Of a stretch of DNA of 64,000 bases, positions 12,907 through 25,085 are shown piece by piece. Positions within the stretch are counted from its first letter, which is position 1. Every line of letters starts with the position of its first letter. The notes beneath the pieces were generated by a model, which was not told the DNA's origin, made no database searches, and saw nothing but the letters and a program-made list of their open reading frames with translations. The position numbers and the translations under genes were made by a program. The stretch comes from Kribbella amoyensis (lineage in GTDB: Bacteria; Actinomycetota; Actinomycetes; Propionibacteriales; Kribbellaceae). Where the stretch lies: positions 4,092,001 to 4,156,000 of the forward strand of contig NZ_VIVK01000001.1 of assembly GCF_007828865.1 (NCBI RefSeq), in the 5' to 3' direction.

Positions 12907-14475
12907 TCAGGAAGCGCCAACAGCTCGGTAAGCCGCCGGCGACCCGTTCCCGCCGTACTCCGGCGCGACCTCCAGCACCACCCCGGACCCGGCCAGCAGA
13001 TCCCGCACGGCGGACGAAACCCACACCGCTCCCGGCGGCGCCTGGTCCGCCAGGTCCGACGCGAGTCTGACCCCGGTCTCGGCCACCTGGTCACCGTGCC
13101 GCGGCACCTCCCCGATCGCGACCCCGAGCCGCACCGCACCACTCAACTGCGCGAGCCCAGCCCGTACCGCGGTGGCCGGACCGTCGAACAGCACGACCGA
13201 CCGCCCACCGGGATCCGTCCGCAACCGCCCGCCCGCACTCGCGAGCCCGTCGGCCAGGCCGGCGGCACCAGGCCCAGCCGGTACGGCGATGGCGGCGAGC
13301 GACAACTCGGGATCGCCCCGGCCGGCGAGATCGGCGAGGAACGGCTCGATCGCGTCGAGGATCTGATCGGGGTTCCCGGAGACGAAGTGGTCGTCGCCGG
13401 GCAGCAGGACGAGTTCGGCGCCCTGGATCCGCTCGGCCAGGTACGCCGCCTCCTCGGTCCGGGTCAGCGCGTCGCCGTCCCGGTGCACCACCAACGTCGG
13501 GACGCGGACCGCCGACAACGCGTCGCGAACGTCGACCAGCGAGTTCATGTCGAGCAACGCGCGCACCGTCGTCGGTGTCGCGGCGGCCCGCATCCGTTGC
13601 GCCCACCAGCGCTGCATCGGCGGATCGGCCGACGGGCACCGCATCCGCAGGTCGGCCTCCCAGTCCCACTCGGTCACCAGCTTGTCGGTGTACGTGGACC
13701 GCTCCTCCGGGGTCTGCGCCCACGGGTAGTCCTCGGCCCAGGTCCGTTTCGCGTAGCACCCGTAGAGCACCAGCGCGCTGACCCGTTCGGGATGCGCGGC
13801 CGCGAACAGGATCGACATCGGCCCACCCTCGGAGTAGCCGACGAGGACCGCCTGCCGCGATCCGGCCGCGTCCATCACGGCGAGCACGTCGTGCATCCGC
13901 GTCTCCAGGTCGGGCAGCCCGATCGGCCGGTCGGACATCCCGGTCCCCCGCTTGTCGAACCGGATCAGCCGCCCGAACGATCCGAGCCGGTCGAGGAAGT
14001 GCGCGTGCCGCGGATCGGCCCAGTCGAGCTCCAGGTGCGAGACGAACCCGGACACCAGGACGAGGTCGAGGTCACCGCCACCGGTCACCTGGTACGCGAT
14101 GTGCAGACCGTCGCTCACCGTGTACCGGATCGGCGACCGCAACGACGGAGCCGGCGAACTTTCCAGCGCACCGGGCGCCGCCACGAACCGGTAGCCCCGC
14201 CCGTGCACGGTCCGGATGATCCGCTGGCTGTGCCCGTCGTCGCCGATCGCCCGGCGGATCTGCTTGATCCGGGTGCTGACCGCGGTCTCGCTGACGAACC
14301 GGCCGCCCCAGACGGCGTCCATCAGCTCCTCCTTCGCGACCACCCGGTCACGGTGCGCGACCAGGTACGCGAGCACGTCGAACGCCTGCGGCTCCAGCGG
14401 CACAGAGGTCCCATCGCGCCGGACCTCGTACAGATCCGCGTCGAACTCGAGACCGCCGTCGAACTGGAGTACCAC
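12907..14475 (-). CDS. Winged-helix regulator fused to an alpha/beta hydrolase and a degenerate class III cyclase-like domain
   Basis: The 522-residue protein has three parts. Residues 1-100 are an OmpR-type winged helix (VSTRIKQIRRAIGDD, IRTVHGRGYRFVA). Residues 115-385 are an alpha/beta hydrolase with GYSEGG (Ser215), Asp333 in HRDGD and His363 in DDHF. Residues 390-505 resemble the back half of adenylate cyclase domains (VVLFDGPATAVRAG, GVAIGEV, VWVSSAVRDLLAGSG) but lack the metal-binding aspartates. Hydrolase-cyclase fusions are known in actinobacteria; adding a DNA-binding head suggests a ligand-gated regulator. GTG 14475 is chosen because the domain starts directly after it; a weak ribosome site leaves it uncertain. 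No partner gene is evident. Confidence 0.8.
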   Translation of the reverse strand: MVLQFDGGLEFDADLYEVRRDGTSVPLEPQAFDVLAYLVAHRDRVVAKEELMDAVWGGRFVSETAVSTRIKQIRRAIGDDGHSQRIIRTVHGRGYRFVAAPGALESSPAPSLRSPIRYTVSDGLHIAYQVTGGGDLDLVLVSGFVSHLELDWADPRHAHFLDRLGSFGRLIRFDKRGTGMSDRPIGLPDLETRMHDVLAVMDAAGSRQAVLVGYSEGGPMSILFAAAHPERVSALVLYGCYAKRTWAEDYPWAQTPEERSTYTDKLVTEWDWEADLRMRCPSADPPMQRWWAQRMRAAATPTTVRALLDMNSLVDVRDALSAVRVPTLVVHRDGDALTRTEEAAYLAERIQGAELVLLPGDDHFVSGNPDQILDAIEPFLADLAGRGDPELSLAAIAVPAGPGAAGLADGLASAGGRLRTDPGGRSVVLFDGPATAVRAGLAQLSGAVRLGVAIGEVPRHGDQVAETGVRLASDLADQAPPGAVWVSSAVRDLLAGSGVVLEVAPEYGGNGSPAAYRAVGAS

Positions 14476-14540
14476 AGCTCGACTATCGCACCCGGGCACG
14501 CCTGGACACACGGGTCCGGGACAGGCACCGATCGGGTTCG

Positions 14541-14546
14541 TAGGCT
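14541..14546 (+). promoter_or_regulatory. -10 box for a leaderless hydrolase transcript
   Basis: TAGGCT lies six bases before the ATG at 14553, so transcription would begin at the start codon. No ribosome-binding site is present. The 77-bp gap also serves the divergent HTH-hydrolase gene. Confidence 0.55.
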
Positions 14547-14552
14547 GGGGCC

Positions 14553-15311
14553 ATGCGACTGCATCACGAGATGACCGGTCCCGAGGGCGCACCCGTGGTT
14601 CTGCTCGGCTCGTCCCTCGGTACGACGCACGCGATGTGGGCACCGCAGGTCGAGGCGCTGTCCGAACGATTCCGGGTGGTCGCGTTCGACCATCGCGGCC
14701 ACGGTGACTCCGAGACCCCCGACGGCCCGTACACGCTCGCCGACCTCGGCAACGACGTCCTGGAGCTGCTCGACACGCTGGACGAGCAGCAGGCGTCGTA
14801 CGTCGGGATCTCCCTCGGTGGCGCGGTCGGCCTGTGGCTCGCGGAGAACGCGCCCGACCGCTTCCACCGGTTCGCCCTGCTCTGCCCACCGGCTGACCCG
14901 GCGGCGAACGCGGCGATGTGGACCGAGCGAGCCGCCCAGGTCCGCGCCGAGGGGACGAAGGCGATCGCGGAGGCGACACTGGGCCGCTGGTTCCTGCCCG
15001 AGCACGCGGAATCCCACCAGGCCGAGGTCGAGGCGATCCGCGACCAGCTCCTCGGCACCTCCGCCGAGGGGTACGCCGCCTGCTGCGAGGCCCTGGCCAC
15101 GGCCGACCTCACCGCGGACCTGGGGAAGATCACCGCGCCCGTCCTCCTCGTCACCACCGAGCAGGACGCCTCGATCCCGCCCGAGACGGTCATCCCGCTC
15201 GCTGGCCGGATCGCCGGCGCGCACCTGGAGATCATCGAGAACGCCGCCCACCTGGTCACGTACTCGCATCCGGAGACGATCAACCCGCTGCTCCTGACCC
15301 ACCTGAGCTGA
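14553..15311 (+). CDS. Alpha/beta hydrolase, 3-oxoadipate enol-lactonase-like
   Basis: The 252-residue enzyme has the full catalytic set: oxyanion region LLGSSLGTTHAMW (17-29), nucleophile elbow GISLGG with Ser87, Asp205 in TEQDASIPP and His233 in NAAHLVTY. The text FDHRGHGDSETPDGPYTLADL is typical of PcaD-like lactonases of beta-ketoadipate degradation. No other pca gene lies nearby, so the substrate may differ. The start follows a TAGGCT box by six bases and is probably leaderless. It is divergent from the HTH-hydrolase fusion gene. Confidence 0.8.
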   Translation: MRLHHEMTGPEGAPVVLLGSSLGTTHAMWAPQVEALSERFRVVAFDHRGHGDSETPDGPYTLADLGNDVLELLDTLDEQQASYVGISLGGAVGLWLAENAPDRFHRFALLCPPADPAANAAMWTERAAQVRAEGTKAIAEATLGRWFLPEHAESHQAEVEAIRDQLLGTSAEGYAACCEALATADLTADLGKITAPVLLVTTEQDASIPPETVIPLAGRIAGAHLEIIENAAHLVTYSHPETINPLLLTHLS

Positions 15312-15351: not shown

Positions 15352-15384
15352 CTGGCCTTCGTGGCCATCGCAGGGAGGACCGAC

Positions 15385-17586
15385 GTGGCTGGTCAGGTAC
15401 GGGAAACCGGCGGCGTCGAGCTGGTCCTCGGTGACCTCTTCGAGACGGAGGCCGCGGCCCTGGTGGTTCCGGCCGGCGCGAACGGTTCGGTCGCGATCGA
15501 CGTCGACAACCGGCTGCGGGCGATGGGCATCGACCTGGCCGCCGAACCGATGCGTCTCGGCACCGTGCGGCTGGTCGCGGGCGGACCGAAGTTGCTGCTG
15601 GTCGCCGCTGTCGTTCCGGACTGGGACCGCTCCACCCCCGCGCTGATCGAGGAAGCGGCTCGCCAGATCGGTGCGTTGGTCCCCACAGCCGGCTCGGCGA
15701 TCGCGTTCCCGCTGCTCGGTACCGGGGCCGGCGGGCTCGATCCCGAGGACTCCGCTCGCGCGATCGCGGCCGGCTTCAGCAGTACCGCTCCGGAGGGATC
15801 GCGCGCGCAGATCTTCGTCCGCGACTCCCACACCCTGGCCGCACTCCGAAACGCGCTGCCAGAGCTCTCGCTGGGGGCCTCGCTGCTCAACCTCTTCGGC
15901 GATGCCCGAACGGAGCTGCCGATCCAGAACCAGACCCAGGACATCGCCGGCTTCGACCAATCGGTCCAGCAGGAACCGGCTCGGCCGATCGAGACTGTGC
16001 CCACGCACACCGACAGCCCGGCCGTGGTCGACGAGCTCGGCCGGAAGGGATTCGCGCGAGTCCTTGCCCGGCGGATCCGGGACGCCCGCACAGAGGAGAG
16101 CCGGAAGGCATCCGGGTCGCCCGATCGGCGGACGCGACGCGGCGGCGCCTTCCTGATCCACCTGCACGCACCGTGGGGCGCGGGGAAGACCTCGCTGCTG
16201 AACTTCCTCAGCGCCGAGCTCCGCCGCGACGATCCGGCTGCGGGGGAGCGGCGCTGCGTGGTCGTCGACTTCAACGCCTGGCGGCATCAGCGGATCGACC
16301 CGCCGTGGTGGTGGCTGATGACCGCGCTCTACAGCGGCGCCGTCCGCGAGCTGCGGCAGTTCGACCGGCGCCGGGCGTACCTGCTCCGGTTGCGCGAGTG
16401 GTACTGGCGGCTCAAGGGCGGCTGGCCCGGGTACCTCGCGTTGCTGCTCGTCGCGGCCATCCTGGTCGTGGTCTGGCAGACCGGGTGGCTCGGCGGGGTC
16501 CGCGGGCAGAAGCTGTTCTCGCTCAACGCGGCGACCGGCCTGATCGTCACCGTGGCCGCGATCGTCACGCCTGCCCTCACGATTTGGGGCCTGCTGCACG
16601 GCTTCGGGCGCTGGGTCTTCGCGACCTCGGCGCGGGGCGCACGGCGGTTCATCGCGAACACCAGTGATCCGATGCGGCTCGTCCAGGAACACCTCGGCGA
16701 CCTGGCCGCGTGGATCCACCACGACGTGGTGATCATGATCGACGACCTGGACCGCTGCCGTGCGCCGTACGTGGTCGAGCTGCTGGAAGGGATCCAGACG
16801 CTCTTCCGAGACGTGCCAGTGACGTACGTGGTCGCCGCCGACCGGGACTGGCTCGCGGACAGCTACGCCACGGAGTACGGCGACTTCGCCGGGTCCACGG
16901 CCGAGCCGGGGCGGCCGGTGGGGTTCCTGTTCCTGGAGAAGACGTTCCAGATCTCCACCGGTCTGCCGCGGGTGGGCGACCAGGCGGACGGGTTCTGGGG
17001 TCGCCTCTTGCGGTCGACGGCCGGCCCTGGTGAGCACGAGCTCGACACCGCTCGCGCCGCCGCTACCCGCGAGCTGGGCCGCCGTGGAGTGACCGAGGCG
17101 CGCCGAGAGGTTGCTGCCCGGCCCGGGGCGACTCCGGCCGACGTCCAGGCGCGGCTGGAGACACTGGCCGTCGAGATGGTCAGCGAGCGGGCGCAGCTGC
17201 AGAACACGCACGTACTCGAACCGTTCCGCACCCTGCTCGGCCGCGACCCGAACCCGCGGCTGATGAAGCGCCTGGTGAACGCATACGGGATCGCCCGCGG
17301 CATCGAGACGTTGCAGGGCATCAACCTCGCCGACGACCGTGGTCGGGAGCAGCAGACCGCGCTGTGGACGATCCTCTGCCTGCGCTGGCCCCTGCTCGGC
17401 GCGTACCTCGCCCGGTACCCCGAGCGGGTGGCGCTGATCGGCGGCGAGGCGGAGCGCGACGTCGTCCCGGAGGACCTGCGCGTGCTTTGCACGGATCCGG
17501 AGGTGGTTGCCGTGGTCCACGGTGACGCTCCGGGGGTGACGGCTGCGCTGGAGGACGCCGCGCTACGCTCCGTCGTCCTCGCCTGA
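15385..17586 (+). CDS. Membrane-anchored KAP-family P-loop NTPase with N-terminal macro-like domain
   Basis: KAP NTPases are STAND-related ATPases with membrane helices inserted in the ATPase domain; bacterial members include phage-exclusion proteins. The GTG at 15385 (733 residues) is preferred over 15361 because GGGAGG lies six bases before it. Residues 1-165 resemble a macro domain (VELVLGDLFETEAAALVVPAGAN; FPLLGTGAGGLDPEDSARAI). Walker A is WGAGKTS with Lys268, followed by FNAWRHQRIDPPWWWL, typical of KAP. Two transmembrane helices lie at about 350-370 and 386-408. Walker B is MIDDLDRC with Asp453. The C-terminal region is helical. It appears monocistronic. Macro domains bind ADP-ribose, but the canonical asparagine-rich loop is altered here, so ligand binding is only a proposal. 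Confidence 0.8.
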   Translation: MAGQVRETGGVELVLGDLFETEAAALVVPAGANGSVAIDVDNRLRAMGIDLAAEPMRLGTVRLVAGGPKLLLVAAVVPDWDRSTPALIEEAARQIGALVPTAGSAIAFPLLGTGAGGLDPEDSARAIAAGFSSTAPEGSRAQIFVRDSHTLAALRNALPELSLGASLLNLFGDARTELPIQNQTQDIAGFDQSVQQEPARPIETVPTHTDSPAVVDELGRKGFARVLARRIRDARTEESRKASGSPDRRTRRGGAFLIHLHAPWGAGKTSLLNFLSAELRRDDPAAGERRCVVVDFNAWRHQRIDPPWWWLMTALYSGAVRELRQFDRRRAYLLRLREWYWRLKGGWPGYLALLLVAAILVVVWQTGWLGGVRGQKLFSLNAATGLIVTVAAIVTPALTIWGLLHGFGRWVFATSARGARRFIANTSDPMRLVQEHLGDLAAWIHHDVVIMIDDLDRCRAPYVVELLEGIQTLFRDVPVTYVVAADRDWLADSYATEYGDFAGSTAEPGRPVGFLFLEKTFQISTGLPRVGDQADGFWGRLLRSTAGPGEHELDTARAAATRELGRRGVTEARREVAARPGATPADVQARLETLAVEMVSERAQLQNTHVLEPFRTLLGRDPNPRLMKRLVNAYGIARGIETLQGINLADDRGREQQTALWTILCLRWPLLGAYLARYPERVALIGGEAERDVVPEDLRVLCTDPEVVAVVHGDAPGVTAALEDAALRSVVLA

Positions 17587-17695: not shown

Positions 17696-19627
17696 ATGAC
17701 TGTCGACTCGTTGTTTCCCCGCCTGGAGCCGTTGTTGCCGGGTGTGCAGAAGCCGATCCAGTACGTCGGTGGTGAACTGAACTCGGTCAGCAAGGAGTGG
17801 GACGCGGTCAGTGTCCGGTGGGCGCTGATGTACCCCGACGCGTACGAGGTCGGCTTGCCGAACCAGGGTGTGCAGATCCTGTACGAAGTGCTGAACGAGC
17901 GGGACCACCTGCTGGCCGAGCGGACGTACTCGGTCTGGCCGGACATGGAGAAGGTGATGCGGGAGCACGACATCCCGCAGTTCACCCTGGACAGCCACCG
18001 GCCGGTCCGGGCGTTCGACGTGTTCGGGCTGTCGTTCTCGACCGAGCTCGGCTACACCAACATGCTGACCGCGCTCGATCTGGCCGGGATCCCGCTGTAC
18101 GCCGTGGACCGGACCGACGAGGACCCGATCGTGCTCGCCGGTGGGCACGCGGCCTTCAACCCCGAGCCGATCGCGGACTTCATCGACGCGGCCGTGCTGG
18201 GCGACGGCGAGGAGATCGTGCTGGCGATCTCCGAGGTGATCCGGGAGTGGAAGGACGAGGGCCGTCCGGGTGGCCGGGACGAGGTGCTGCTCCGGCTGGC
18301 CAAGTCCGGTGGCGTCTACATCCCGAAGTTCTTCACCGTCGAGTACCTCGAGGACGGCCGGATCAAGCGGGTCGCGCCGAACCGGCCGGGCGTGCCGTGG
18401 CGGACCGCCAAGCACACCGTGATGGACCTGGACGCCTGGCCGTACCCGAAGAAGCCGCTGGTCCCGCTCGCCGAGACCGTGCACGAGCGGTACTCGGTGG
18501 AGATCTTCCGCGGCTGTACCCGCGGCTGCCGGTTCTGCCAGGCCGGGATGATCACCCGGCCGGTCCGGGAGCGCAGCATCACCACGATCGGCGACATGGT
18601 CGACAACGGGCTGAAGCAGTCCGGGTTCGAGGAGGTCGGGCTGCTCAGCCTGAGCTCGGCCGACCACAGCGAGATCGCCGACGTCGCCAAGGGCCTCGGC
18701 GACCGGTACGAGGGCAGCAACGTGTCGCTGTCGTTGCCCTCGACAAGGGTCGACGCGTTCAACATCACGCTGGCCAACGAGTTCTCCCGCAACGGCCGGC
18801 GCAGCGGTCTGACCTTCGCCCCGGAGGGCGGCTCGGACCGGATGCGCAAGGTGATCAACAAGATGGTCAGCGAGGAGGACCTGATCCGCACCGTCGCCGC
18901 GGCGTACAGCCACGGCTGGCGGCAGGTGAAGCTGTACTTCATGTGCGGGCTGCCGACCGAGACCGACGAGGACGTGCTCGCGATCGCGGACCTGGCCAAG
19001 CGCGTGATCGCGACCGGCCGTGAGGTCTCCGGCCGCCGCGACATCCGCTGCACCGTGTCGATCGGCGGGTTCGTGCCGAAGCCGCACACGCCGTTCCAGT
19101 GGGCCTCGCAGCTCGGTGCCGAGGAGACCGACGCGCGGCTGAGCAAGCTCGCCGCCGCGATCCGGTCCGACAAGAACTACGCCAAGGCGATCGGGTTCCG
19201 GTACCACGACGGCAAGCCCGGCATCATCGAGGGCCTGCTGTCCCGCGGCGACCGCCGGGTCGGCCGGATCATCGAGCAGGTCTGGCGCGACGGCGGCCGG
19301 TTCGACGGCTGGAGCGAGCACTTCTCGTACGACCGGTGGGTCGACGCGGCCGGGCAGGCGCTCGCCGCCGAGCCCGTGGACCTGGCCTGGTACACGACCC
19401 GGGAGCGGGAGTACGCCGAGGTGCTGCCGTGGGACCACCTGGACTCCGGGCTGGACCGCGACTGGCTCTGGGAGGACTGGCAGGACGCGCTCGAGGAGGA
19501 CGGCGCGATCGAGGTCGAGGACTGCCGCTGGACCCCGTGCTTCGACTGCGGCGTCTGCCCGCAGATGGGCACCGAGATCCAGGTCGGCCCGACCGGCAAG
19601 AAGCTGCTTCCGCTCTCCGTCGTCTGA
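17696..19627 (+). CDS. B12-binding-type radical SAM protein (TIGR03960 family)
   Basis: This widespread family pairs a cobalamin-binding-like N-terminal domain with a radical SAM domain. The 643-residue protein has the iron-sulfur motif CTRGCRFC (Cys274, 278, 281) and a downstream LKLYFMCGLPTETDED strand. A second cysteine cluster near the C-terminus (DCRWTPCFDCGVCPQMG) could bind another cluster. Function is not established to my knowledge. In most actinobacteria and many other phyla the next gene is the TIGR03936 protein, often annotated as one polypeptide with it, followed by rne. Here that partner is at 33679, about 14 kb away. Confidence 0.92.
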   Translation: MTVDSLFPRLEPLLPGVQKPIQYVGGELNSVSKEWDAVSVRWALMYPDAYEVGLPNQGVQILYEVLNERDHLLAERTYSVWPDMEKVMREHDIPQFTLDSHRPVRAFDVFGLSFSTELGYTNMLTALDLAGIPLYAVDRTDEDPIVLAGGHAAFNPEPIADFIDAAVLGDGEEIVLAISEVIREWKDEGRPGGRDEVLLRLAKSGGVYIPKFFTVEYLEDGRIKRVAPNRPGVPWRTAKHTVMDLDAWPYPKKPLVPLAETVHERYSVEIFRGCTRGCRFCQAGMITRPVRERSITTIGDMVDNGLKQSGFEEVGLLSLSSADHSEIADVAKGLGDRYEGSNVSLSLPSTRVDAFNITLANEFSRNGRRSGLTFAPEGGSDRMRKVINKMVSEEDLIRTVAAAYSHGWRQVKLYFMCGLPTETDEDVLAIADLAKRVIATGREVSGRRDIRCTVSIGGFVPKPHTPFQWASQLGAEETDARLSKLAAAIRSDKNYAKAIGFRYHDGKPGIIEGLLSRGDRRVGRIIEQVWRDGGRFDGWSEHFSYDRWVDAAGQALAAEPVDLAWYTTREREYAEVLPWDHLDSGLDRDWLWEDWQDALEEDGAIEVEDCRWTPCFDCGVCPQMGTEIQVGPTGKKLLPLSVV

Positions 19628-19639
19628 ACCGAGCCCGGC

Positions 19640-20800
19640 TCAGGACGCCAGGTCCTCCGCCGGGTCCAGCAGGTCGAGCGCTTCCCGCAAGGGAAGCGCC
19701 TCGGCACTGTCGAGGACCACGTCGGCACCGGCCAGCTCGTCGGCGCTGACGTACGGGTTGGGGATCCCGATCGTCCCCATCCCGGCAGCGGCCGCGGCGG
19801 CGACCCCGTGCGCCGTGTCCTCCACAGCGACCGCCGCGGAGCCGGCCACACCCAACCGCGACAACGCGAGCAGGTACACCGCCGGATCCGGCTTGTGCCC
19901 GTCCACGTCGTCCCCGGTCACCACCACGTCGAAGAGGTCCAGCGCACCCACCCGCACGAGGTGCCCTTCGACCCAGGACCGCGCCGAACTGCTCGCGATC
20001 GCCACCCGCAGCCCGAGCTCGCGGGCCTCGGTGAGCCAGGCCCGGATCCCCGGCCGGAAGTCGAGCGTCTCGGTGTCCATCACCAGCCCGTCGAAGTCGA
20101 ACACCACCGCTTCGATCGTGCTCCCCACCAACCGGGCGCTCAGCTGGTCGATCTCGGTGTCGGTCAGCCCGATCCGGACCAGGTAGGCCCGGGCGCCGCC
20201 GTACCGCCGATCCAGGTGATCGAGGGAGTCGAGGATGACCTCGGGCGGAGTCCGCAGGTCGGCAGGGCGTTCCGTGATCTCCAGCAGGACCTCGCTGATC
20301 GCGTAGTCCGCGGCGATCAGGTCCCGCGGGACGCCGACCAGGTCGAGCAGGACCGCGACGAGCAAGCCGGTGCGGTCCTTCCCGGAGTGGCAGTGCACGA
20401 CCACGGGAGCGCTCAACGGTACGGCCGCGATCGCCCGGTACGCCGCGGCGATCTTCCGCCCGTTGCGGTCGAGGCTGCCGCGGTAGATGTGCGCCAGCGA
20501 CGGCTCGGACTCGGGATCACGCAGCGCCTCGGCCTCGGGGTCGATCCACGGGATCCGGACGTACGTGGGCGAGCCGTCGAGCGGGTGCGGTTCGCCGAGG
20601 GTTTCCATCTCCCAGTCGGACCGCAGGTCGAGCACGAGGCCCGCGGCGATACCGTCCAGCGCGGCGCGGCCGGCTGGGGACAACCGGTGCAGCGAGTCCG
20701 TCCGGACCACGGTGCCGGCGCGGGTCGTCCGTCCTGAGTTGGTCGGCAGCCCGCCGACGTCGCGTGCGTTCCGGCAGCCGTCCCACCCCAGTTGAGCCAC
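19640..20800 (-). CDS. Tyrosine/dual-specificity phosphatase fused to a cap-less HAD phosphatase
   Basis: The 386-residue protein joins two phosphatases in one frame. Residues 1-225 are a Y_phosphatase3-type domain with signature HCHSGKDRTG (Cys137, Arg143) and the N-terminal NARDVGGL motif. Residues 228-386 are a HAD domain: DFDGLVMDTE (nucleophile Asp235, acid/base Asp237), motif II IASSS, Lys303 and motif IV VEDTAHGV. The usual 60-80-residue C1 cap between DTE and RPGI is absent; only TLDF remains. The GTG at 20800 follows TAATCT by seven bases, so an internal leaderless promoter is possible. It lies 5 nt after the M28 gene and may be its operon partner. Confidence 0.8.
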   Translation of the reverse strand: MAQLGWDGCRNARDVGGLPTNSGRTTRAGTVVRTDSLHRLSPAGRAALDGIAAGLVLDLRSDWEMETLGEPHPLDGSPTYVRIPWIDPEAEALRDPESEPSLAHIYRGSLDRNGRKIAAAYRAIAAVPLSAPVVVHCHSGKDRTGLLVAVLLDLVGVPRDLIAADYAISEVLLEITERPADLRTPPEVILDSLDHLDRRYGGARAYLVRIGLTDTEIDQLSARLVGSTIEAVVFDFDGLVMDTETLDFRPGIRAWLTEARELGLRVAIASSSARSWVEGHLVRVGALDLFDVVVTGDDVDGHKPDPAVYLLALSRLGVAGSAAVAVEDTAHGVAAAAAAGMGTIGIPNPYVSADELAGADVVLDSAEALPLREALDLLDPAEDLAS

Positions 20801-20805
20801 GCGCT

Positions 20806-22131
20806 CTAGATTAGGGCACCTCCGAGCGACTCGAAGTCGTGCCAGGTCCCGTCCCAGGCTTTGTGCTGCAGCGAGCGGTCCGCACCGGCGGCGAACACGT
20901 CCACCCGTCCGGGACCCCACGACACCACCGACCCGGCCGGCCGTGGCCGCGTCCGAGCCGTCGCCTGCAGGCCGAGCCAACCGGCGAGCGCGGCGACGTT
21001 CATCCGCAGGATCTCGGCGGCGAGGGCCCAGTCGAGGAAGGTCAGCTTGTCGTCGGCCGAGTGGATGTGCCCGTTCGCGCTGTCGGCGCCCTCGATCGTC
21101 AGCAGCGCGGGCAACCCCGCGTTGATGAACGGGACGTGGTCGCTGGCGAACGGGTTCAGCGACGTCTCCACCTTCAGCGACGTGTACGTGGCGGCCGCCG
21201 CGGCCAGGTCGCTCATCAACGCCGACGAAACCTGCGCACCCTCCAGCAGTACCGTCGGTCCGGCCGTGTTCTTGCTGGCGATCATGTCCATGTTCAGTAC
21301 CGCGCGGAGGCGGGCCCGTTCAGCGGCGGGCAGCGCAGCGACGTACTGCTTGCTCCCGTGCAGCCCCTCCTCCTCACCACCGAAGAGGACCAGGCGGAGG
21401 TCGTGCTGCCACGGCCGGGTCGCGAGGATCCGGCCGAGCTCGAGGACCCCGGCCGAGCCGCTGCCGTTGTCATCGGCGCCGGGCGCCGGGCCGTTCGGTC
21501 CGCCGGCCAGGTTGATCGAGTCCAGGTGCGCCGTGATCAGGACCAGCCCGCGCGGGACCGGACCACCACCGGCCCGGTCGCCGATCAGGTTCTGCGACTG
21601 GCCCGCGCCCACCGTGATCGGCATCCGGGTCACGCTGTAGCCCATGGCCACCATCCGGGCGGCGGCGAAGTCCACCGCCTGACCGAACGCCGGGCTCAGC
21701 GAGTGCCGGGTCGGCAGACTCGCGAACCAGGTCAGGTCGGCCTGGTACGAGGTCGGCGACAGCGCACCGACCAGGGCCGTGACCGCGGGATCCACCCGGC
21801 GCGGCGCGAGCGTCGGTACGTCCACCGCGATCCCGGGGCGCAGGGTCTGGACGCGCCAGCAGTGGTTGTTCCGCCGACGCGGTCTGTCGGCGGACGAGAT
21901 CACCAGTTGGCGTCCGTGGTCCAGCAACGGCACCACGTCGGGGTACTCGTCCTGGAACGAGCGGCCGACCTGGGTCACCAGCAGCAGACCGGGCGCGGTC
22001 CGGGAAGCGCGGCCGAGTCGTTCGTCGGCGCCGCCCCAGACCAGGGACCGATCGCCGAACCGCGCGGCCTGTGGAGCGTCCACGGCCTCGGCAGCCGGGA
22101 CGACGAGATAACGGACAGGTGAGGTGGTCAT
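20806..22131 (-). CDS. M28-family zinc aminopeptidase with one C-terminal propeller-blade repeat
   Basis: M28 peptidases remove N-terminal residues using two zinc ions. In the 441-residue protein the ligands are His202 (TAHLDS), Asp220 or 221 (GADDNGSGSAG), Glu253/254 (GGEEEGLHGS), Asp282 (NMDM) and His357 (HIHSADD). The N-terminal 125 residues look like an inhibitor-type or protease-associated segment. Residues 402-438 (SWGPGRVDVFAAGADRS then LQHKAWDGTWHDFESLGG) are a single copy of the blade repeated seven times in the upstream metalloprotease. No signal peptide is apparent. The ATG lies one base past the stop of the preceding small gene, so this is an operon. Confidence 0.88.
   Translation of the reverse strand: MTTSPVRYLVVPAAEAVDAPQAARFGDRSLVWGGADERLGRASRTAPGLLLVTQVGRSFQDEYPDVVPLLDHGRQLVISSADRPRRRNNHCWRVQTLRPGIAVDVPTLAPRRVDPAVTALVGALSPTSYQADLTWFASLPTRHSLSPAFGQAVDFAAARMVAMGYSVTRMPITVGAGQSQNLIGDRAGGGPVPRGLVLITAHLDSINLAGGPNGPAPGADDNGSGSAGVLELGRILATRPWQHDLRLVLFGGEEEGLHGSKQYVAALPAAERARLRAVLNMDMIASKNTAGPTVLLEGAQVSSALMSDLAAAAATYTSLKVETSLNPFASDHVPFINAGLPALLTIEGADSANGHIHSADDKLTFLDWALAAEILRMNVAALAGWLGLQATARTRPRPAGSVVSWGPGRVDVFAAGADRSLQHKAWDGTWHDFESLGGALI
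20808..20813 (-). promoter_or_regulatory. Possible internal -10 box before the phosphatase fusion
   Basis: TAATCT on the reverse strand overlaps the last codons of the M28 gene and lies seven bases from the GTG at 20800. That spacing suits leaderless transcription independent of the upstream operon. Confidence 0.4.
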
Positions 22132-22132
22132 G

Positions 22133-22423
22133 CTATTCCTGCCAAACGAGTTCGAGTCGGTCGGGATCGGCGCCGACCACCATCGCGGAGCCGCCGACGC
22201 CGCGGGCGACCACGCCGGACGGTTCCCACTCGCCGGTGTGGGGTTCCGGGGCGTCGCCGCGGCCGATCAGCCACTCGACGAAGGTGCCGTCCGCGCGGAA
22301 CTCCACTCCCCGCCGGCCGCGGGCCGGCGGGAAGGGGAAGTCGTCGCGGCGGTAGACGGTCACCCCGTCGTGGTCCTCCTCGAAGGAGTGCGTCCACCGC
22401 CCGACGATCGGGTCCGTGTTCAG
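22133..22423 (-). CDS. Small protein of unknown function, probably CTG-initiated and coupled to the upstream protease
   Basis: I do not recognise a family. The 96-residue product carries a clear domain-like sequence ([20 protein letters not shown], then [20 protein letters not shown], then HTGEWEP, ending [10 protein letters not shown]) that resembles small lipocalin-like or bacterial stress-domain proteins. No ATG, GTG or TTG lies in frame before GRWTHS. A CTG at 22421-22423 overlaps the protease stop as CTGA, exactly like ATGA and GTGA couplings elsewhere in this window. An AGGTGA stretch lies 7 nt upstream of it. The stop is one base before the M28 ATG. A GTG further in would delete the conserved-looking start. 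Confidence 0.6.
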
Positions 22424-24786
22424 GTCGCCATCACCTGCCCAGACGTTGCCGCGGGCATCGTTTCCTCGGCCGGTGCGGCGGGGCCGGTCGGCGGCAGCGA
22501 GATCTTGAAGTCGCTGATCACGCCGCCGAGGTACTCGTAGCCGGTGAGCGACGGTCCCCAGGCGTTCCCGTCCCACCACTTGTGGTAGAGCGCGGAGTCG
22601 GTGCCGACCACGAAGACGTCCAGCCGATCGCTGTCCCAGGAACTGACCCGCGGCTCGTCGACGCAGATGCCGCCGAGCGACTCCCAGCCGGACCAGGCGT
22701 TCCCGTCCCACGCCTGGTGCCAGAGTGCGGAGTCCGTGCCGAGCACGAACACGTCGAGCCGGTTCTCGCCCCACGACACCACGGTCGGTGTGGTCGTGCA
22801 GATGCCGCCGAGCGACTCCCAGCCGGACCAGGCGTTGCCGTCCCACCACTTGTGCCAGAGCGCGGAGTCCGTCCCGACGACGAACAGGTCCAGCCGGTTC
22901 TCGCCCCACGCGACCACCCGCGGCGGGCTCGCGCAGATCCCGCCGAGCGACTCGTACCCGGACCAGCCGGATCCGTCGTACCACTTGTGCCAGACGGCGT
23001 TGTCGGTCCCGAGCACGAAGGCGTCGAGCCGGCTCTCACCCCACGACACCACCTCGGGTGGGCTCATGCAGATCCCGCCGAGGTACTCGTAGCCGGTGAC
23101 GGACGGTCCCCAGGCGTTCCCGTCCCACCACTTGTGGTAGAGCGCGCGGTCCGTGCCGAGCACGAACACGTCGAGCCGGTTCTCGCCCCACGTCGCCACC
23201 CGCGGCGGGCTCATGCAGATCCCGCCCATGTACTCGTAGCCGGTGACGGACGGTCCCCAGGCGTTCCCGTCCCACCACTTGTGATAGAGCGCGCGGTCGG
23301 TCCCGAGCACGAAGGCGTCGAGCCGGTCCTCGCCCCAGGCGGCCACTTCCGGGGCACTCATGCAGACACCTCCCATGTATTCGTAGTCGGTGACGGACGG
23401 TCCCCAGGCGGACCCGTCCCACCACTTGTGGTACATCGCGCGGTCCGTGCCGAGCACGAACGTGTCCAGTCGATCGGCGCCCCAGGCAACCACCGGGCCG
23501 GCCGGTTCGGGCGTCCCGGCGCCGGCCGAACCGGCGATCAGTGGCGACCGCACGGTGTCCAGGCAGGCCGCCATCCGGGCCACCTGGTCGGTCGTGAACA
23601 TCACCATGCCGCGGTCGTCGGTGTAGTCCATGTAGTTGACGAACAGGTCCCCGTTCGGCCCGTTGTTGCAGGTCACGTGCGGGAACGCCGGCACCCCGAA
23701 GTTCGGGCCGGCCTGGTTCGGGGTGTCGGCGACCTCGTCGCTGCCGGAGCAGCCGGTGCCGTCGTCGCCCCAGATGTGGAACAGGTTCAGGTAGTGCCCG
23801 ACCTCGTGGGTGGTGGTCCGGCCGAGGTCGAACGGCGCCGCCGCGGTCCCGTTCGTGCCGAAGCCGGAGTGCAGGATCACCACGCCGTCGGTGTTCGCCG
23901 GGCCGCCGGGGAACTGCGCGTACCCGAGCAGGCCGCCGCCGAGCTGGCAGACCCAGACGTTCAGGTACCGGTCGGTCGGCCACGGGTCCACGCCGCCGGT
24001 CGCCGAGGACTTCACCGCATCGTCGGTACTGAACGAGGTCTTCGTGGTCTGGGTCCGGGTGATCCCGTTCGTCGGGTTGCCGTTCGGGTCCTCGGTCGCC
24101 AGGAAGAACTCGATCCGTCCGTCCGCGACCAGCCCGCTGTACGGCGCGGGGGTGAAGCCGATGTCGGTGTTGGCGGCCCGGAAGTCCCGGTTCAGGACGG
24201 CGAGCTGGCTGTCGATCTGGGCCTGCGAGATGTTCTGCGCGGCGGTGTTGAAGACGACGTGCACGACGACCGGGATCCGCGCGATCCCGGGGAACCGCTG
24301 CTCACCGGTGACGTACTGCGTGGTCGCGTTCTCCAGCGCCGACCGTGCCGCGGCGTACCCGGGCTCGGTCGACAGCAGCCGGCGGTGGACGTCCATCACG
24401 CCACAGTTGCGCCTCGTCGGCTGGTCCGCGGCGCCACCGTCACCGCCGTCGCCGGACCGGCCGCCGCCACCCGATCCGCCGGATCCTCCACCGCCGGTTC
24501 CCGGGCCACCGGACATCCCCGCGCCACCCGGCATCCCGGACTCGGCCCGGCCCGCCGATCCGGTCATTCCCATCGCGGGACCGGTCGACTCCGCGGTCAT
24601 CCGGGTCTCGGCCGGACTGCCCGGACTCCCGTTCGCCGACATCCCGCGCGCCGGCATCCCACCGGACTCGCGGCCCGCCGGCATTCCGCCCGCCGCCGTC
24701 GGACCGGACATCGCCTCGCCCGGCATCCCCGGCATCCGGTCCTCCGGCCGGTGCCTGTCCGCTCGCCCGTTCGCCTTCCTCGGCAT
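22420..24786 (-). CDS. M43-type (pappalysin/cytophagalysin) metalloprotease with a seven-bladed lectin-like propeller
   Basis: The 788-residue protein has four parts. Residues 18-92 are rich in Met, Gly, Pro and Ser (11 Met in 75 residues), and 93-120 are almost all Gly and Ser. Residues 170-415 are an M43 catalytic domain with the zinc motif [11 protein letters not shown] (His327, Glu328, His331, His337) and Met-turn NYMDY. Residues 431-759 hold seven blades of 46-50 residues, each WGxxRLDxFVxGTDxAxxHKWWDG. This matches PLL-type fucose-binding seven-bladed propellers. A 29-residue tail ends the protein. No Sec or Tat signal is visible from this ATG, which follows GGGGGAGAA closely; the start or the export route is unclear. 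It heads the operon with the small protein and M28. Confidence 0.88.
22510..23496 (-). repeat. Seven tandem in-frame repeats encoding propeller blades
   Basis: Units of about 138-150 bp encode seven near-identical blades of the M43 protease. Units 2 and 3 differ at only a few residues, which implies recent duplication or gene conversion. An eighth, divergent copy sits at the 3' end of the neighbouring M28 gene. Confidence 0.9.
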
Positions 24787-25085
24787 TTCTCCCCCTTGCT
24801 CCGGGAGGGGCGCAGAGCAGGACGGAACCGGCCGCCGCGTCAGCGCGCGCGTCATCGGTTCCGGACCGGAACGCTTTCCCAGATCCCCCAGACCCACGTC
24901 TCAGCCGAAGGCGGACCGACCACCTTCCCCCACCGAACAGGCTGCCCCTGGTCACTGTTCGCTTCCACCTTGCTCCCGTCACCCGGGGTGCACAACCCCA
25001 CAGGTACCGGTAGTGACCACCACCGAGCACCCCGCCCGAGGTAGAAGAGTTGCTTGAACCACGAACCAGCGGCGGCGGTGTCGGT
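24787..25085. other. Non-coding upstream region of the propeller-protease operon
   Basis: About 300 bp separate the M43 protease start from the GNAT stop; both genes are on the reverse strand. It should hold the protease operon promoter. I see no confident -10 box, palindrome or small gene. Open frames crossing it lack family sequence. Confidence 0.4.

What the first reader, a model, noticed from the sequence alone, without database searches (positions are those of the whole stretch)
15385..17586. Macro-like domain fused to a membrane KAP NTPase
The protein shows Walker A (Lys268), the FNAWRHQ...PPWWW KAP block, two membrane helices inserted between Walker A and Walker B, and Asp453. The first 165 residues carry macro-type text ending in FPLLGTGAGGLDPED. 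KAP NTPases are STAND relatives that include phage-exclusion proteins, and macro domains bind ADP-ribose. A membrane ATPase gated by an ADP-ribose signal would be a reasonable immune sensor. I infer this; no other defence gene is adjacent.
Basis: partly seen in the sequence, partly recalled or inferred. Interest (0 to 1): 0.62.

Follow-up and report, generated by a model that had tools for sequence, protein, structure and literature searches.

The report
Macro domain on membrane KAP ATPase
In soil bacteria of the genus Kribbella, one gene joins a nucleotide-binding 'macro' module to a membrane-embedded ATPase of a kind used in anti-virus defence; related genes carry a protease in the same place, so it looks like a plug-in immune switch, though nobody has tested it.

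Summary
Window 15385-17586 (+) encodes a 733-residue protein: macro domain (about 9-160), variable linker, and a KAP P-loop NTPase with two hydrophobic segments between Walker A and Walker B. Sequence profiles and a confident model support the macro fold. Intact copies occur in 7 of 38 searched Kribbella genomes, a broken copy in an eighth. In all eight the gene follows the same alpha/beta-hydrolase gene; that site is empty in 10 of 30 genus loci examined. The closest KAP cores found outside the genus carry a trypsin-like domain instead, and the same macro subfamily is fused to a bSEFIR-type (TIR-like) defence domain in one other genome. So the macro domain sits in an exchangeable N-terminal slot. 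Its dN is nearly three times that of the KAP part.

Best reading: a single-gene, Tmn/PifA-like membrane conflict NTPase whose macro module binds an NAD-derived ligand. A new variant of a known kind; defence is plausible but unproven.

The parts
15373..15379 (+). Shine-Dalgarno-like GGGAGGA, 5 nt before GTG 15385
   Evidence: sequence read directly
15385..17586 (+). whole gene, 733 aa macro-KAP fusion
15409..15864 (+). macro domain, residues about 9-160; phosphate-loop-like PLLGTGAGGL at residues 109-118
   Evidence: Pfam Macro 2.3e-4; profile to 2dx6 7.8e-6; model pLDDT 85.7 and Z 17.5
15865..15990 (+). hypervariable linker, residues 161-202
   Evidence: mean pairwise identity 15.5% over 21 pairs
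15991..17583 (+). KAP NTPase core and C-terminal helical part, residues 203-733
   Evidence: Pfam KAP_NTPase 2.5e-24; mean pairwise identity 71.4% over 21 pairs
16171..16194 (+). Walker A, PWGAGKTS, residues 263-270 (K268)
   Evidence: W264, G265, G267 and K268 invariant in 10 of 10 KAP cores
16435..16491 (+). first hydrophobic segment, residues 351-369
   Evidence: Kyte-Doolittle, 19-residue window, peak 2.27
16540..16596 (+). second hydrophobic segment, residues 386-404
   Evidence: Kyte-Doolittle, 19-residue window, peak 2.19
16735..16758 (+). Walker B region, MIDDLDRC, residues 451-458
   Evidence: D454, L455, D456, R457 and C458 invariant in 10 of 10
14553..15311 (+). upstream alpha/beta-hydrolase gene, constant left neighbour; not thought part of the mechanism
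   Evidence: Pfam Abhydrolase_1 1.7e-28; next to the fusion gene in 8 of 8 carrier loci, the broken one included
17696..19627 (+). downstream radical-SAM gene, usual right neighbour; not thought part of the mechanism
   Evidence: Pfam Radical_SAM_N2 3.7e-57 and Radical_SAM 4.4e-20; next downstream in 6 of 8 carrier loci

Best explanation
A single-gene, membrane-anchored conflict NTPase. Shown by sequence and model: an N-terminal macro domain, a variable linker and a KAP P-loop NTPase with two hydrophobic segments inserted between Walker A and Walker B. Inferred: the KAP part is an ATP-dependent switch held at the inner face of the membrane; the macro domain binds an NAD-derived ligand (free ADP-ribose, a base-exchanged ADP-ribose, or an ADP-ribosylated protein) and couples it to the switch; activation clusters the protein and harms the membrane or the invader, giving abortive, phage-exclusion-type protection. 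The macro domain occupies the slot where relatives carry a trypsin-like domain and a more distant paralogue a TIR domain, so it is a plug-in input or effector module. Because the usual hydrolase residues appear to be missing (recalled motifs), I favour a reader over an ADP-ribose hydrolase.
For: Macro fold. KAP with two inserted hydrophobic segments. Domain exchange on one KAP clade: the 7 macro-KAP, 2 trypsin-KAP and L009 cores group together (100/99; the macro clade 99/98, with long-branch warnings), and G375/G565 carry Trypsin_2 at 1.7e-13/1.8e-13 in the same position. A more distant Kribbella KAP protein carries an N-terminal TIR_2, 1.2e-31. The same macro subfamily is fused to TIR_2 3.9e-16/SEFIR 4.3e-13 in G1028, and that domain matches the PADLOC bSEFIR defence model at 7.7e-46. 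PADLOC matches of the window protein to PDC-S20, QatA and PifA KAP proteins, and of its trypsin and L009 relatives to the same three. Patchy presence at a fixed site with empty alleles and one broken copy, as expected of a dispensable accessory gene. Macro dN exceeds KAP dN in 21 of 21 pairs, while P109, L110, L111, G112, G114, A115 and L118 stay invariant in 8 of 8. Literature passages: Tmn is a KAP NTPase with two transmembrane domains that can inhibit phages (PMC11846954); KAP can replace STAND NTPases in systems with N-terminal TIR, caspase or trypsin domains (PMC8195603); [quoted passage not shown]
Against: No phage test exists. No defence gene among 10 neighbouring proteins. No phage match, no viral-contig relative and only 3 partial KAP matches in plasmids; carriers share one chromosomal site, so it does not behave like a mobile defence cassette. 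No TIR_2 or ThsB_TIR in the window genome. The trypsin-KAP relatives also lie among ordinary-looking genes, as judged by eye from ORF translations. Of six Kribbella KAP paralogues scanned, two have WD40 propellers and three no N-terminal Pfam match, so the N-terminal slot is not only for enzymes or signal readers. Fast macro evolution with omega 0.32-0.80 could be relaxed constraint, and alignment error in this gappy part may inflate it. The full-length model is poor (pLDDT 58.1), so no domain arrangement is known. Pocket and catalytic assignments rest on recalled motifs, not on a residue-level structural alignment. The macro-SEFIR genome is 84% complete with 7% contamination.
Confidence: 0.5

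Rival explanations
1. A housekeeping or stress-linked membrane ATPase. The KAP part organises a membrane protein complex and the macro domain senses free ADP-ribose or NAD turnover during stress; no role in phage defence.
For: Fixed chromosomal site, no defence gene among 10 neighbours, no phage or viral copy found, 7 diverged intact copies consistent with long inheritance in the genus.
Against: Absent or broken in 31 of 38 genus genomes with empty sites in 10 of 30 loci; relatives carry protease-like and TIR-type domains in the N-terminal slot; fast macro evolution.
Confidence: 0.25
2. The macro domain is an enzyme (ADP-ribosyl hydrolase) in the effector slot. The KAP part senses the invader and unleashes removal of ADP-ribose from proteins or nucleic acid, for example undoing a phage ADP-ribosyltransferase.
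For: Some relatives hold enzyme-type domains in the slot (Trypsin_2, TIR_2); the phosphate-loop-like segment is invariant; model neighbours include DarG (5m3e, Z 15.3).
Against: By eye and recalled motifs, neither the Asn/Gly-rich loop of MacroD-type enzymes nor a conserved Lys/Asp pair of TARG1/DarG-type enzymes is kept across the 8 rows. Other paralogues have WD40 propellers there, which are not enzymes.
Confidence: 0.15
3. A Thoeris-like effector: a TIR enzyme elsewhere in the genome makes an ADP-ribose derivative that activates the macro-KAP protein in trans.
For: ThsA membrane-macro effectors are proposed to work this way (PMC11204291 passages); the same macro subfamily is fused to TIR/SEFIR in G1028.
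Against: Window genome: no TIR_2 at 1e-6, no ThsB_TIR at 1e-4. TIR_2 in 2 of 7 intact carriers, one of the two being the TIR-KAP fusion of G030; ThsB_TIR in 0 of 7. SEFIR rang in no genome and no control, so that test is void. Other TIR families were not searched.
Confidence: 0.07

Closest known systems
Tmn (KAP NTPase with two transmembrane domains; anti-phage; PMC11846954, passage seen)
   Same: KAP family NTPase with two membrane segments; a named defence system that can inhibit T2, P1, phiVi and phiX according to the passage
   Different: No macro domain mentioned in the passages seen; mechanism called unexplored there; no Tmn-named model appeared among the PADLOC hits, and direct sequence relation was not tested
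QatA, PifA and PDC-S20 KAP proteins (PADLOC and NCBIfam models)
   Same: KAP NTPase core; partial hits, best 46.8, 41.9 and 59.4 bits
   Different: QatA equivalog match 56.5 bits against a cut-off of 600; no PADLOC hit among 10 neighbours
ThsA membrane-macro effector of Thoeris (PMC11204291, passages)
   Same: Membrane helices plus an ADPR-binding macro domain in one protein
   Different: No NTPase is mentioned for ThsA in the passages seen; its macro construct is residues 62-278, so the helices come first, and it has ThsB partners; here the hydrophobic segments are inside a KAP NTPase after the macro domain, and no ThsB_TIR match is found in carriers
bSEFIR defence protein (PADLOC model)
   Same: The TIR/SEFIR part of the G1028 macro-SEFIR protein matches it at 7.7e-46, which ties this macro subfamily to a defence-type domain
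   Different: No KAP part; that fusion is in another family of actinobacteria
STAND/KAP conflict NTPases with N-terminal TIR, caspase, trypsin or other peptidase domains (PMC8195603, PMC10907252, passages)
   Same: Exchangeable N-terminal module before a STAND-like or KAP NTPase in multicellular bacteria
   Different: Macro is not named as that N-terminal module with KAP in the passages seen; no C-type lectin or EAD match in this protein
TTHA0132 (2dx6), macro protein of Thermus
   Same: Nearest solved macro domain by sequence and tied best by fold
   Different: A 159-residue chain without KAP; the VNAAN-like stretch seen in 2dx6 is not kept here (its role is recalled)

Membership tests
Macro domain fold | macro fold | tested here: met
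   model pLDDT 85.7; Z 17.5 to 2dx6 over 148 residues; Pfam 21.6 bits, just under the 22 cut-off
Macro domain fold | ADP-ribose binding | not testable with these tools
   D17 is D in 7 of 8 rows and the PLLGxGA segment is conserved, but no ligand data
KAP NTPase | KAP P-loop domain above the Pfam cut-off | tested here: met
   86.5 bits against 20
KAP NTPase | membrane helices inserted between Walker A and Walker B | tested here: met
   hydropathy peaks 351-369 and 386-404 between K268 and D454
KAP NTPase | ATP hydrolysis | not testable with these tools
   Walker residues kept in 10 of 10
QatABCD defence | QatA equivalog score and neighbouring qat genes | tested here: not met
   56.5 bits against 600; no PADLOC hit in 10 neighbours
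Thoeris (ThsA membrane-macro) | N-terminal helices, macro domain, ThsB TIR partner | tested here: not met
   hydrophobic segments lie inside KAP, after the macro domain; ThsB_TIR in 0 of 7 intact carriers
Tmn | KAP with two transmembrane segments and phage exclusion | tested here: inconclusive
   architecture alike; sequence relation and phage phenotype not tested
STAND/KAP conflict NTPase with exchangeable N-terminus | one NTPase clade with different N-terminal domains | tested here: met
   macro, trypsin and L009-type N-termini on one KAP clade, support 100/99, with long-branch warnings
STAND/KAP conflict NTPase with exchangeable N-terminus | role in anti-phage immunity | not testable with these tools
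   no phenotype data; no defence neighbours found

The most novel reading that the evidence does not exclude
A one-protein NAD-signal immune switch: the macro domain reads an ADP-ribose-type messenger or mark raised by infection, and the ATP-loaded, membrane-embedded KAP core executes. It would join Thoeris-type ligand reading with Tmn/PifA-type membrane execution without any second gene, in a platform whose N-terminal reader or effector is swapped between macro, trypsin and TIR modules.
Probability: 0.22. Interest if true: 0.72.

Novelty: new variant of a known kind. Interest (0 to 1): 0.47.

Why it matters
How membrane KAP NTPases such as Tmn sense and act is open (the passage calls Tmn's mechanism unexplored). 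Here nature has swapped defined modules (macro, trypsin-like, and in a distant paralogue TIR) onto KAP cores. The macro version is directly testable because macro ligands can be assayed one by one, so this family could reveal whether KAP NTPases are gated by NAD-derived signals. It would also link the NAD/TIR signalling field to the KAP field.

Tried and rejected
Thoeris-like trans signalling was looked for with TIR_2, ThsB_TIR and SEFIR in 38 genus genomes: no sign of association with carriers. The SEFIR answer is void because no control rang. An operon with the upstream hydrolase was considered: it adjoins the gene in 8 of 8 carriers but is also present at empty sites, so it is the resident neighbour. 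Mobile or phage origin: no match in phages, no relative among 21 pattern-matched viral stretches, and 3 plasmid records with partial KAP matches; the macro part alone found no plasmid match. Wider spread: nothing beyond Kribbella with the full fusion in order (293 genomes), class (394) or phylum (396) samples, which overlap. A macro-only search gave one weak foreign match in 374 class genomes, and two besides the known G1028 in 150 genomes of family f20; from their translations these three look like another macro type. Full-length structure: pLDDT 58.1, too poor for domain arrangement; in the 50 rows shown of a fold search with it, alignments span about 156-180 columns, as for a macro domain, and no KAP structure is listed. 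Absence of ThsA structures from the 50 shown VIA rows says nothing. From the KAP tree I left out L082, L083 and L086 of the 14 loci with KAP hits and the broken G027 copy.

Full report
The gene. Window 15385-17586 (+) is open for 733 codons from a GTG, with a Shine-Dalgarno-like GGGAGGA five bases before it. The six other intact orthologues begin with MA at the aligned point, so this start is preferred to the upstream GTG at 15361. The genome gave one match. The genus is Kribbella by inference: two named Kribbella contigs found have the contig lengths of G035 and G007, which are placed in the window's genus.

The domains. Pfam places KAP_NTPase on residues 255-637 (2.5e-24) and Macro on 56-126 (2.3e-4, 21.6 bits, just under its cut-off of 22). 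The six orthologues score weaker or not at all with Pfam Macro: L005 0.049 and L006 0.0048, the other four nothing at E up to 1. A profile of the seven N-termini finds the Thermus macro protein 2dx6 at 7.8e-6, and with the SEFIR-fused relative added at 6.2e-7. AlphaFold2 on the 8-row alignment gives pLDDT 85.7 and pTM 0.83. Foldseek's best match is a macro domain solved with ADP-ribose (3gqo_B, E 8.5e-9, TM 0.76); VIA-align gives Z 17.5 to 2dx6_A over 148 residues at 2.5 A. The macro assignment is therefore secure as a fold. Ligand binding is inference.

Motifs. W264, G265, G267 and K268 of Walker A (PWGAGKTS) and DLDRC (454-458) are invariant in 10 of 10 aligned KAP cores; D453 is E in the two trypsin-fused relatives. 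Two hydrophobic peaks, 351-369 and 386-404, lie between the Walker motifs, and all seven orthologues have peaks in both places. In the macro part P109, L110, L111, G112, G114, A115 and L118 are invariant in 8 of 8 rows, and D17 is D in 7 of 8. That these are the diphosphate loop and the adenine-binding Asp, and that the MacroD Asn/Gly loop and the TARG1/DarG Lys/Asp pair are missing, is my reading with recalled motifs, not a structural alignment.

Distribution. In the genus sample 16 of 38 genomes have some match at E up to 0.001. Seven hold the intact fusion (G000, G006, G007, G014, G030, G035, G036), G027 a broken copy with stops and split matches, and G018 a KAP relative with another N-terminus (L009); the other seven have only distant KAP matches. 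Beyond Kribbella the full fusion was not found in samples of 293 order, 394 class and 396 phylum genomes (samples overlap; thresholds 1e-30, 1e-15, 1e-12). A pattern-based scan of 84,980 species, which reaches close relatives only, gave 3 loci; L015, labelled Streptomyces sp. SID13031, has the contig length of G027. No phage match and no viral-contig relative; plasmids gave 3 partial KAP matches.

Site. The alpha/beta-hydrolase gene at 14553-15311 (Pfam Abhydrolase_1 1.7e-28) is the gene next upstream of the fusion, among those tested, in 8 of 8 carrier loci (window, L013-L019, the broken copy included). The radical-SAM gene at 17696-19627 (Pfam Radical_SAM_N2 3.7e-57) is next downstream in 6 of 8; in L013 it is inverted and about 6 kb away, and L019 ends at the contig edge. 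Of 30 genus loci around the radical-SAM gene (loci were given for 30 of 38 genomes), 4 had the fusion upstream (95-119 nt away in three, 642 nt in L054), 10 had the hydrolase 71-108 nt away (empty site), 6 had it 583-1280 nt away, and 10 showed neither within 1.5 kb upstream; two of these ten are the carriers G035 and G036, whose fusion lies elsewhere. So the gene is gained or lost whole at one chromosomal place. None of ten neighbouring proteins between 8658 and 24897 hits PADLOC at 1e-5.

Module exchange. The closest KAP cores found outside the genus, G375 and G565, carry Trypsin_2 (1.7e-13, 1.8e-13) in place of the macro domain; by eye, His, Asp and Ser of the triad are present. In a 21-row tree the seven macro-KAP cores (99/98), the trypsin pair and L009 form one clade (100/99). 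The tool warns of long branches (L009 among them) and that some deep joins may be false; the trypsin-L009 join has only 90/88, and L082, L083 and L086 were left out. Of six more distant Kribbella KAP paralogues scanned, one carries TIR_2 (L074, G030, 1.2e-31), two carry WD40 propellers and three have no N-terminal Pfam match. Conversely, the same macro subfamily is fused to TIR_2 (3.9e-16)/SEFIR (4.3e-13; PDB 5y8e 3.7e-22) in G1028, and this part matches PADLOC's bSEFIR model at 7.7e-46. That genome is 84% complete with 7% contamination.

Rates. Mean pairwise identity over 21 pairs is 42.4% for the macro part, 15.5% for the linker and 71.4% for the KAP part. dN of the macro part exceeds that of KAP in 21 of 21 pairs; dS is also higher in 19 of 21, less strongly. 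Macro omega is 0.32-0.80, below 1 throughout, and exceeds KAP omega in 19 of 21 pairs. This fits a recognition module under change, or relaxed constraint, and alignment error may add to it; it does not prove an arms race.

Signal source. TIR_2 is found in 8 of 38 genus genomes, in 2 of 7 intact carriers (in G030 it is the TIR-KAP fusion) and not in the window's genome. ThsB_TIR is found in 5 of 38 and 0 of 7 intact carriers. SEFIR in 0 of 38, but no control rang, so that is void. A Thoeris-like partner in trans is thus unsupported; other TIR families and other NAD-processing enzymes were not surveyed.

Mechanism. Most likely the KAP core is an ATP-driven membrane switch and the macro domain its ligand-reading input (or effector). 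Shown: architecture, conservation, exchange of modules, presence or absence at one site. Inferred: ligand, activation, clustering, membrane damage, defence. The parallels are Tmn (passage, PMC11846954), KAP in place of STAND in systems with N-terminal effectors (passages, PMC8195603; PMC10907252), Macro and trypsin among effectors of related conflict systems (passages, PMC7159879), and ThsA macro domains that bind ADPR and oligomerise (passages, PMC11204291). PMC9122126 was searched and does not name Tmn. The 2004 KAP paper was not held and may already list some fusions.

Novelty. No held paper has both 'KAP NTPase' and 'macro domain', nor 'KAP', 'macro domain' and 'NTPase' as whole words; this covers open-licence PMC papers only. 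I call it a new variant of a known kind, the KAP conflict NTPase with an exchangeable N-terminus.

Noticed in passing
L033:958-2004 (-), G1028 (same gene as L092:11011-12057): Macro domain of the same subfamily fused to a TIR_2/SEFIR domain in one 348-residue protein; PADLOC bSEFIR 7.7e-46. The next ORF (L092:12261-12971) looks like a nucleotidyltransferase by eye but has no Pfam match at 1e-4.
   Followed up: partly
L031 and L032 (G375, G565): Trypsin-like domain fused to a KAP NTPase; triad residues look intact by eye; single gene among apparently unrelated genes.
   Followed up: partly
L074:1621-4983 (+), G030: TIR domain at the N-terminus of a KAP NTPase, 1121 residues; other Kribbella KAP paralogues (L080, L081) carry WD40 propellers.
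   Followed up: partly
L009:1357-3858 (-), G018: KAP relative of the same clade with an N-terminus of about 300 residues without a Pfam match.
   Followed up: no
L041, L044, L052, L060, L064, L066, L069: Upstream of the radical-SAM gene other Kribbella hold different cargo, e.g. a recurrent pair of small ORFs with hydrophobic stretches, so the site may be a small insertion hotspot.
   Followed up: partly
window 20806-24897 (-): Adjacent Peptidase_M28 and Peptidase_M43 proteins; the second has DUF346 repeats, and similar repeats at the end of the first match it in tblastn.
   Followed up: partly
window 12907-14979 (-): One ORF joins a Trans_reg_C winged helix to an alpha/beta hydrolase, with a cyclase-like tail by eye.
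   Followed up: partly
window 19640-20980 (-): One ORF joins a Y_phosphatase3 domain to a HAD hydrolase.
   Followed up: no
L036, L038, L039: Proteins of 361-378 residues with a C-terminal macro-like domain, apparently of another type, found at E 7e-7 to 6e-8 in other actinobacteria.
   Followed up: no
   Followed up: no
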